Shown here: in pieces, positions 11,881-41,280 of the stretch
How the letters are laid out: each line of letters opens with the position of its first letter
Position numbering within the stretch: position 1 is the stretch's first letter
Notes under the pieces: model-generated
Told to the model about the DNA's origin: nothing
Databases searched by the model: none
The model's input: only the letters and a program-made list of their open reading frames with translations
Translations under genes and position numbers: made by a program
Assembly: GCA_009780985.1 (NCBI GenBank)
Contig: WQYZ01000012.1
Location: 1 to 43,270, forward strand
Source of the DNA: Oscillospiraceae bacterium
GTDB taxonomy: Bacteria > Bacillota > Clostridia > Oscillospirales > WRJC01
Direction of reading: 5' to 3'
Length of the DNA: 43,270 nt

Positions 11881-11917
11881 AAATCGTAGGGGCAAACACT
11901 GTTCGCCTCTACGATTT
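11881..11917. repeat. GTAGGGGCG-family palindromic element, copy A (short form)
   Basis: aaatcgtaggggcaaacactgttcgcctctacgattt; arms pair with one G-T and one mismatch; intergenic between convergent stops at 11871 and 11927. Confidence 0.85.
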
Positions 11918-32822: not shown

Positions 32823-32901
32823 GTAGGGGCGGATGGTAATCCGCCCGTGATTTTACGGGACGATTACTTAAATTCAACGAAGTTGAATTTGTGTCCCCTA
32901 C
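32823..32901. repeat. GTAGGGGCG-family element, copy C (long, multi-hairpin form, 79 bp)
   Basis: Outer arms gtagggg (32823-32829)/cccctac (32895-32901); internal hairpins gggcggat/atccgccc, cccgt/acggg, aaattcaac/gttgaattt. Confidence 0.8.
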
Positions 32902-39934: not shown

Positions 39935-40014
39935 CGTAGGGGCGGAATCTATTTCCGCCCGTTAACCCCCCGATTTTGTTTTATATCGGGCGGATATTGA
40001 ATCCGCTCCTACGG
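39935..40014. repeat. GTAGGGGCG-family element, copy D (long, multi-hairpin form, 80 bp)
   Basis: Outer arms ccgtagggg (39935-39942+)/ctcctacgg (40006-40014); internal hairpins gggcggaa/ttccgccc, cccgat/atcggg, gggcggat/atccgctc. Confidence 0.8.
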
Positions 40015-40081
40015 ATTCGGATACATTTATTGTATAAATGCGCTATTTTTTGTATTATTCGACCGGATTTACAAAATACTG

Positions 40082-40110
40082 TTGACAGTACACAATGTAC
40101 GGTGTATAAT
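40082..40110 (+). promoter_or_regulatory. consensus sigma-A promoter with palindrome in the spacer
   Basis: TTGACA (40082-40087), 17-nt spacer, TATAAT (40105-40110); gtaca-caa-tgtac at 40088-40100. Confidence 0.8.
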
Positions 40111-40171
40111 ATAAGCGTACTCTTGCAAGGTATAAAATATAAATTTATTTTATTAAAAAGTATAGGAGAGT

Positions 40172-40885
40172 TTGTTTATGGACGAAAATAACGATGATTT
40201 TGGTAATCTTATGGATTTACTTAAGCCAAACCCGCAGCAGGAAAATAAAGATGATTTTGACAACATTATGGATTTACTCAAGCCATCGCCGCAGAAAGAA
40301 GAAAAACGAGAAAATTCTGATTCCAAACTTGACGAGATAAAAACCACGCTTCAAAAATTGCAGGACGAAATCACGCAGTTGAAAAAAGAAAAAGAAGATG
40401 TAAAAAACGACGGCAAAGAAGAAGACCCTGCGTTTGATTCTAAACTTACCGGAGTCACAGATTCTGTGGGAAAATATGCGGCTCAGGAAATGAATAAATT
40501 TTTAGATGAAACCGAAATGAAAGCAATTGGTATTTGTATATGTAAATCCAAAATTCCCGGAGGTAGCGGTACAACAATGACAACATCATGTCTCAAATCT
40601 TTCGATGGCATAAGCGAAGAAGGCGTAGCAGCAGCCGTCGAAGTATTCACAAATCCCAGAAGAATCGCTATTCTGAAAGTCTTGATTGCCCAGCCTCTTA
40701 CGGCTACCGGAATCACCCAAAAAACCGGGCTTGTCGGAGGACAGTTATATCACCATTTATCCGCTCTCGAAAATGCAGGGCTAATCGTCAAAGAAGACGA
40801 TATATACAAAGCTGACGGCGGCACATACGGACTGCTTATCAATCTTTATACGGTTGTAGGCGGAATGAAATTGGCGAAGGAATAG
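40172..40885 (+). CDS. ArsR-like winged-helix regulator with tandem N-terminal motif and coiled coil (start 40172 or 40178)
   Basis: C-terminal EVFTNPRRIAILKVLIAQPLTATGITQKTGLVGGQLYHHLSALENAGLIVKEDD is wHTH; N-terminal DDFGNLMDLLKPNPQQENKDDFDNIMDLLKPSPQKE. Confidence 0.85.
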   Translation: MFMDENNDDFGNLMDLLKPNPQQENKDDFDNIMDLLKPSPQKEEKRENSDSKLDEIKTTLQKLQDEITQLKKEKEDVKNDGKEEDPAFDSKLTGVTDSVGKYAAQEMNKFLDETEMKAIGICICKSKIPGGSGTTMTTSCLKSFDGISEEGVAAAVEVFTNPRRIAILKVLIAQPLTATGITQKTGLVGGQLYHHLSALENAGLIVKEDDIYKADGGTYGLLINLYTVVGGMKLAKE

Positions 40886-40888
40886 AGT

Positions 40889-40952
40889 TTTAGATTGTAG
40901 GGGCGGATTCCCGCCGAACGCGTTCGGCGGGAATCCGCCCCTACAATCTAAA
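40889..40952. repeat. GTAGGGGCG-family element, copy E: perfect 64-bp palindrome
   Basis: tttagattgtaggggcggattcccgccgaacg|cgttcggcgggaatccgcccctacaatctaaa; every base of the two 32-nt halves is complementary. Confidence 0.92.
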
Positions 40953-40982
40953 TTATATAAAATTTTACAGTATCAAATTTGC

Positions 40983-41007
40983 GGGCGGAAATGGATTCCG
41001 CCCCTAC
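40983..41007. repeat. GTAGGGGCG-family element, copy F (right-half only)
   Basis: gggcggaa-atgga-ttccgcccctac; 30 bp after copy E. Confidence 0.75.
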
Positions 41008-41043: not shown

Positions 41044-41072
41044 TTGACAGAATATAAAACTTATGCTATAAT
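41044..41072 (+). promoter_or_regulatory. consensus sigma-A promoter of rplJL
   Basis: TTGACA (41044-41049), 17-nt spacer, TATAAT (41067-41072). Confidence 0.85.
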
Positions 41073-41089
41073 ATTACAAATATTAAAAA

Positions 41090-41280
41090 TATCCTGAGAC
41101 AACAGGTGCATATAAATTAAATTCTATGAATTTAATTTGCGTAATTTTGCCTGTCGAGGAGAAAAAACGAATTTATATTCCTGAATATTTATATAGTTTT
41201 CTCTTTGCGGTGAAGTTTGTCGTTAAACGTCAGTCATCATCAAAGGGGATTTTTTATTTTAATTTATAGAGTGAATAGAG
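41090..41280 (+). ncRNA. ribosomal protein L10 leader (autoregulatory mRNA structure)
   Basis: Position directly upstream of rplJ and conserved-looking gagacaacaggtgc...ttttgcctgtcgaggagaaaa; boundaries approximate. Confidence 0.7.

What the first reader, a model, noticed from the sequence alone, without database searches (positions are those of the whole stretch)
40889..40952. Perfect 64-bp palindrome (32-bp arms, no loop) right after a regulator gene
tttagattgtaggggcggattcccgccgaacg is followed directly by its exact reverse complement. Perfect loopless palindromes of this length are unstable in replicating DNA (hairpin cleavage by SbcCD-type nucleases), so its survival suggests very recent formation, selection or active maintenance. 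It starts 4 nt after the wHTH stop codon. It could also be an assembly fold-back artefact.
Basis: seen in the sequence. Interest (0 to 1): 0.7.

Follow-up and report, generated by a model that had tools for sequence, protein, structure and literature searches.

The report
Long double-foot REP palindrome in REPIN
The perfect 64-bp palindrome is real, but it is an unusually long member of a known class of small mobile DNA hairpins (GTAG-type REP elements) that fill this genome alongside the transposase thought to spread them; its perfect symmetry most likely comes from one DNA-copying slip rather than from a special function.

Summary
In detail: 40889-40952 is an exact 64-bp palindrome with no spacer, starting four bases after the stop of an ArsR-like wHTH gene. 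It is not a one-off. Its core, 40897-40944, runs from GTAG to CTAC and belongs to a dispersed family. GTAGGGGCGGAT occurs 42 times in this genome (reversed control 0), and GTAGGGGCG 188 times (control 16). Most copies are head-to-head hairpin pairs (REPINs); about a dozen are solo "double-foot" palindromes. The same genome carries a RAYT (REP-associated tyrosine transposase) with an in-frame pair of GTAGGGGCGGATTCAATATCCGCCC hairpins inside its gene. Published work describes this type: TnpA_REP subclass 2.4 with double-foot REPs. The partner REP of our copy is still present at 40983-41007. A sister REPIN (C47) has nearly the same 17-nt loop cap but an ordinary 3' half. In the window, that 13-nt half is replaced by a 24-nt mirror of the left arm plus 8 nt of flank. 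This fits a fold-back template switch, and explains the symmetry better than REP-dimer deletion. An assembly fold-back is unlikely, since the mirror stops after 32 nt and unique sequence follows. There is no intrinsic-terminator U-tract. New member of a known kind.

The parts
40889..40896 (.). TTTAGATT: 8-nt left flank outside the REP foot, mirrored on the right side
   Evidence: most family members have 0-2 mirrored flank bases
40897..40911 (+). GTAGGGGCGGATTCC: 5' foot (GTAG) and 5' stem half of a type-A REP
   Evidence: identical to 5' half of L021, L008, L171; 14 of 15 in L172
40912..40928 (.). CGCCGAACGCGTTCGGC: 17-nt nested palindromic cap inserted in the REP loop
   Evidence: CGAACGCGTTCG core occurs at 10 places in the genome, 8 of them inside GTAG-type hairpins; L021 has a variant at the same insertion point
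40929..40952 (.). GGGAATCCGCCCCTACAATCTAAA: 24-nt mirror of the left arm plus left flank, replacing the ordinary 3' half ATATCCGCCCG..; its CTAC makes the element 'double foot'
   Evidence: comparison with sister REPINs
40983..41007 (-). partner inverse type-B REP, GTAGGGGCGGAATCCATTTCCGCCC, completing a 111-bp head-to-head REPIN 40897-41007
39936..40012 (.). second A/B REPIN in the window, upstream of the wHTH gene
32823..32901 (+). REPIN inside an outer inverted repeat (TTAGATNTGTCCGGAAAC...), a MITE-like unit dispersed in the genome
40178..40885 (+). wHTH (ArsR/HTH_5) regulator gene whose stop codon lies 3 nt before the palindrome
   Evidence: PF01022 34.4 bits
40082..40110 (+). promoter-like site of the wHTH gene, TTGACA-17-TATAAT
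   Evidence: consensus match only
41044..41072 (+). promoter-like site of the L10 leader/rplJL transcript, downstream of the REPIN
   Evidence: consensus match only
41075..41264 (+). L10_leader (RF00557), start of the next transcription unit
   Evidence: 48.7 bits over gathering score 44

Best explanation
The palindrome is the left member of a head-to-head REPIN (40897-41007) of GTAG-type REP elements, non-autonomous hairpins that are probably spread by a RAYT/TnpA_REP transposase of subclass 2.4 type acting on single-stranded DNA at the GTAG foot. Its loop holds a nested micro-palindrome (cap). I infer that during replication the nascent strand folded back at this cap, and the polymerase copied 24 nt of the strand's own left arm, through the REP foot and 8 nt into the flank, before returning to the template. 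That turned an imperfect REP into an exact 64-bp double-foot palindrome. At the RNA level it would be a very stable hairpin just after the stop codon of the wHTH gene, expected to act like other REPs there (3'-end mRNA protection and/or damping of translation), not as an intrinsic terminator. Shown: family, copy number, partner REP, cap, RAYT with in-gene REPs, sister copies. Inferred: RAYT mobilisation, the template switch (I would give this step about 0.5), the RNA effect.
For: GTAGGGGCGGAT 42 copies against 0 for the reversed control; GTAGGGGCG 188 against 16. GTAGGGGCGGA is expanded here (59), while two same-genus genomes have 0 and 4. Arrangement is mostly head-to-head pairs plus solo double-foot palindromes. 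RAYT gene G000:C67:20593-21102 matches NF047646 at 1.3e-21 (77 bits, 3 under its cut-off of 80) and PF01797 above cut-off; it has an in-frame pair GTAGGGGCGGATTCAATATCCGCCC inside the gene, the same arrangement as in related RAYTs of the order. Sister REPINs show type A at the left and type B at the right; L021 has nearly the same capped A and an ordinary 3' half ATATCCGCCCGTG; in the window 13 nt are replaced by a 24-nt mirror, matching the 111 bp length against about 100 expected. L006 is a second copy in which one flank has become a 12-nt mirror of the other, unlike its siblings. REPs at or under 15 nt from a stop codon are reported to stall ribosomes in E. coli (PMC12306157). Template switching as a maker of perfect hairpins: PMC8794818.
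Against: No sister strain or read data: the pre-switch state at this very site is not seen. RAYT activity on these REPs is untested, and several solo double-foot copies have unlike arms (L116, L108, L045, L114), which fits dimer deletion rather than fold-back for those copies. The mirrored flank could be chance: shuffled pairings give a maximum of 8 or more in 8% of trials. The L021 cap differs in its centre (AAAATG for AACGCG).
Confidence: 0.8

Rival explanations
1. Central deletion: two capped REPs in head-to-head orientation recombined across their identical caps (CGAACGCGTTCG is its own reverse complement, so it is a direct repeat in an inverted dimer), dropping the middle and leaving GTAG...CTAC. 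This is the origin proposed for double-foot REPs in the literature.
For: Proposed in PMC6006769. Solo double-foot copies with two unlike arm types occur in this genome (L116, L108, L045, L114).
Against: Needs a trimer here, because the partner inverse REP at 40983-41007 is still in place at REPIN distance. Does not explain why 8 nt outside the feet are also mirrored.
Confidence: 0.25
2. Insertion of a double-foot REP into the centre of a pre-existing 16-bp AT palindrome TTTAGATT/AATCTAAA.
For: Would explain the mirrored flanks; L050 has a different 8-nt mirrored flank TTAATTGT/ACAATTAA.
Against: Most copies (38 of 42) have mirrored flanks of 0-2 nt, so insertion into palindromes is not the rule. 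Does not explain the retained partner REP and the cap shared with L021.
Confidence: 0.15
3. It is a selected intrinsic transcription terminator of the wHTH gene, unrelated to REPs.
For: Position just after the stop codon and before the next promoter; strong RNA hairpin.
Against: No U-run follows; the terminator scan finds nothing at this place. The same sequence is dispersed across the genome.
Confidence: 0.04
4. Assembly fold-back artefact.
For: The genome is a 387-contig draft, 88% complete with 6% contamination; no reads are available.
Against: The mirror stops after 32 nt and unique, sensible sequence follows; independent double-foot palindromes of the family, one a perfect 42-mer, sit elsewhere; the sequence matches sister copies in detail.
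Confidence: 0.04

Closest known systems
Double-foot REP sequences of TnpA_REP subclass 2.4 (Quentin et al. 2018, PMC6006769)
   Same: 5' GT[AG]G and 3' C[TC]AC; stem bottom of three G-C pairs; cognate RAYT genes with in-frame REPs inside the gene
   Different: Carries a 17-nt nested cap and 8 nt of mirrored flank, giving a 64-bp exact palindrome; sits as one member of a REPIN
GTAG super-family of REPs (Di Nocera et al. 2013, PMC3733652)
   Same: GTAG tag, head-to-head dimers, location after coding regions, RAYT association; long self-complementary loops known in Bradyrhizobium GTAG-14
   Different: GTAG is paired with CTAC here rather than unpaired; GTAGGGG is not mentioned in that paper's main text (its figures could not be read)
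REPINs (Bertels and Rainey 2011, PMC3116915; abstract only)
   Same: Two REPs in inverted orientation with a spacer, multi-copy, within-genome expansion
   Different: Left REP turned into a perfect double-foot palindrome

Membership tests
GTAG REP super-family | GTAG tetranucleotide at the 5' foot of a G+C-rich stem | tested here: met
   40897 GTAG|GGGCGG...
GTAG REP super-family | many dispersed copies in the genome | tested here: met
   42 and 188 copies against controls 0 and 16
GTAG REP super-family | GTAG unpaired outside the stem | tested here: not met
   paired with CTAC in this copy, which is the double-foot variant; met in most siblings
GTAG REP super-family | RAYT gene with matching REPs in the same genome | tested here: met
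   G000:C67:20593-21102
Double-foot REP, TnpA_REP subclass 2.4 | 5' GT[AG]G and 3' C[TC]AC with three basal G-C pairs | tested here: met
   GTAGGGG...CCCCTAC, definition
Double-foot REP, TnpA_REP subclass 2.4 | cognate transposase gene with in-frame REP insertions | tested here: met
   both in-gene REPs lie inside an uninterrupted frame
Double-foot REP, TnpA_REP subclass 2.4 | transposase placed in subclass 2.4 by phylogeny | not tested
   no subclass reference set was available; assigned by features only
REPIN | two REPs in inverted orientation separated by a spacer | tested here: met
   40897 (+) and 41007 (-), 111 bp
Intrinsic terminator | hairpin followed directly by a U-run | tested here: not met
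   TTATATAAAA follows the palindrome; one search finds no site here
Intrinsic terminator | transcript ends at the hairpin | not testable with these tools
   needs 3'-end mapping

The most novel reading that the evidence does not exclude
REP hairpins in this genome grow by layers: small self-complementary caps (such as CGAACGCGTTCG) enter REP loops, and fold-back template switching then rewrites one arm as the mirror of the other and runs on into unique flanks, so that mobile REPs keep producing longer exact palindromes at new sites.
Probability: 0.3. Interest if true: 0.5.

Novelty: new member of a known kind. Interest (0 to 1): 0.3.

Why it matters
It shows, with sister copies in one genome, a plausible before-and-after picture of how an ordinary REP becomes an exact long palindrome, which bears on where double-foot REPs come from (dimer deletion or template switching). 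It also ties a large REP family to RAYTs that carry their own REP pair inside the reading frame.

Tried and rejected
An orthologous locus was sought with the wHTH protein in 58 relatives, but the closest matches (same genus) are only 28-33% identical, so no empty-site comparison was possible. The single genome-contig scan gave one unrelated Pirellulales record with a lone REP half. Mirrored flanks as a general target preference was tested on 42 elements and rejected for most: 38 have 0-2 nt, total 12-nt matches 154 against 161 by shuffling, though 4 elements reach 5-8 nt (p 0.0075 for 4 or more such elements). Intrinsic terminator rejected.

Full report
Observation. The 64-bp palindrome at 40889-40952 is exact and has no spacer. 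It begins at the fourth base after the stop codon (40883-40885) of an ArsR-like wHTH gene. It is the longest perfect palindrome in the window and in all own-genome stretches examined; the next is 42 bp, and belongs to the same family. As a single strand it folds into one uninterrupted hairpin.

Family. The core 40897-40944 runs GTAGGGGCGGATTCC-CGCCGAACGCGTTCGGC-GGGAATCCGCCCCTAC. GTAGGGGCGGAT occurs 42 times in this genome (reversed control 0), and GTAGGGGCG 188 times (control 16). GTAGGGGCGGA occurs 59 times here, against 0 and 4 in two genomes of the same genus, so the family has expanded in this lineage. Reading 73 distinct places and 56 elements with both feet shows three forms: single hairpins, head-to-head pairs of 56-99 bp (REPINs), and solo double-foot palindromes of 26-48 bp with GTAG at one end and CTAC at the other. 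The palindrome in question is the longest of the solo double-foot type.

Transposase. The genome has several IS200-like Y1 transposases. One, at C67:20593-21102, is a REP-associated tyrosine transposase by its best NCBIfam match (NF047646, 77 bits against a cut-off of 80) and by Pfam Y1_Tnp above cut-off. Inside its uninterrupted reading frame lie two hairpins GTAGGGGCGGATTCAATATCCGCCC, one forward and one inverse, on either side of the HUH motif. Where the reading frame could be followed, nearly all related RAYTs of the order show the same layout with other REP sequences, the forward GTA in codon phase 0 in most. Of 30 RAYT loci drawn from the wider phylum, mostly a longer type, 28 could be read and none had such a pair inside. 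Quentin et al. 2018 describe in-gene REPs as the special feature of TnpA_REP subclass 2.4, together with 'double foot' REPs, for which they suggest central deletion in an inverted dimer (PMC6006769). I assign the subclass by these features, not by a tree.

Anatomy. An inverse REP, GTAGGGGCGGAATCCATTTCCGCCC, lies at 41007-40983. Five other REPINs in the fetched loci pair a type-A REP, GTAGG[GA]GCGGATTC[CA]ATATCCGCCC (capped in L021), with a type-B REP like this one. So 40897-41007 is an A/B REPIN whose A member is altered. The sister L021 (C47) carries nearly the same 17-nt cap at the same point in its A loop but keeps the 3' half ATATCCGCCCGTG. In the window this 3' half is gone; in its place is GGGAATCCGCCCCTACAATCTAAA, the mirror of the left arm and of 8 nt of flank. 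The extra length (111 bp against roughly 100) fits a 24-for-13 replacement. The cap core CGAACGCGTTCG occurs at 10 places, 8 of them in GTAG-type hairpins and 2 in other repeats.

Origin. A fold-back template switch at the cap explains the exact symmetry, the mirrored flank and the retained partner in one step; template switching is a described source of perfect hairpins (PMC8794818). L006 looks like a second case, with one flank rewritten as a 12-nt mirror. Central deletion in a dimer, the published idea, would have to start from a trimer here, but it fits other copies with unlike arms. Insertion into a ready-made AT palindrome is possible but not the rule in the family. The origin step is inference; the family identity is well supported.

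Function. The element lies between the wHTH gene and a separate promoter-like site and L10 leader. No U-run follows, so it is not an intrinsic terminator by the usual criteria. REPs within 15 nt of a stop codon have been reported to lower translation by stalling ribosomes, and REPs at 3' ends to protect mRNA (PMC12306157). Such effects are likely by position but untested here. No SbcD above the family cut-off was found, but the assembly is incomplete.

Verdict. Real, explained in kind, and ordinary as a class; unusual for length and exactness. The useful part is the within-genome comparison that suggests how such perfect palindromes arise.

Noticed in passing
G000:C67:20593-21102 (L178/L041), L179, L181, L182, L184, L185, L187, L190, L193: RAYT genes carry an in-frame head-to-head REP pair bracketing the HUH motif, with a different REP sequence in each gene; the published description places such insertions mostly between HUH and Y.
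   Followed up: partly
window 32823-32901; L004, L006, L010 and about 15-20 more: A REPIN (GTAGGGGCGGATGGTAATCCGCCC) sits inside a larger inverted repeat TTAGATNTGTCCGGAAAC, a MITE-like dispersed unit; the first 8 nt of our palindrome (TTTAGATT) resemble its outer end.
   Followed up: partly
G000: ten sites, L117-L126: The self-complementary 12-mer CGAACGCGTTCG recurs as a cap in hairpin loops of REPs and twice in other repeats (L117, L123), as if it were a mobile micro-palindrome.
   Followed up: partly
window 39936-41007: The wHTH gene is flanked on both sides by A/B REPINs.
   Followed up: no
L127 733-754: A Pirellulales MAG has the REP half GTAGGGGCGGATTCCCGCCGAA in a lone position, apparently inside a gene.
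   Followed up: no
window 11881-11917: Another near-perfect GTAGGGGC palindrome with 5 nt of mirrored flank (AAATC/GATTT).
   Followed up: no
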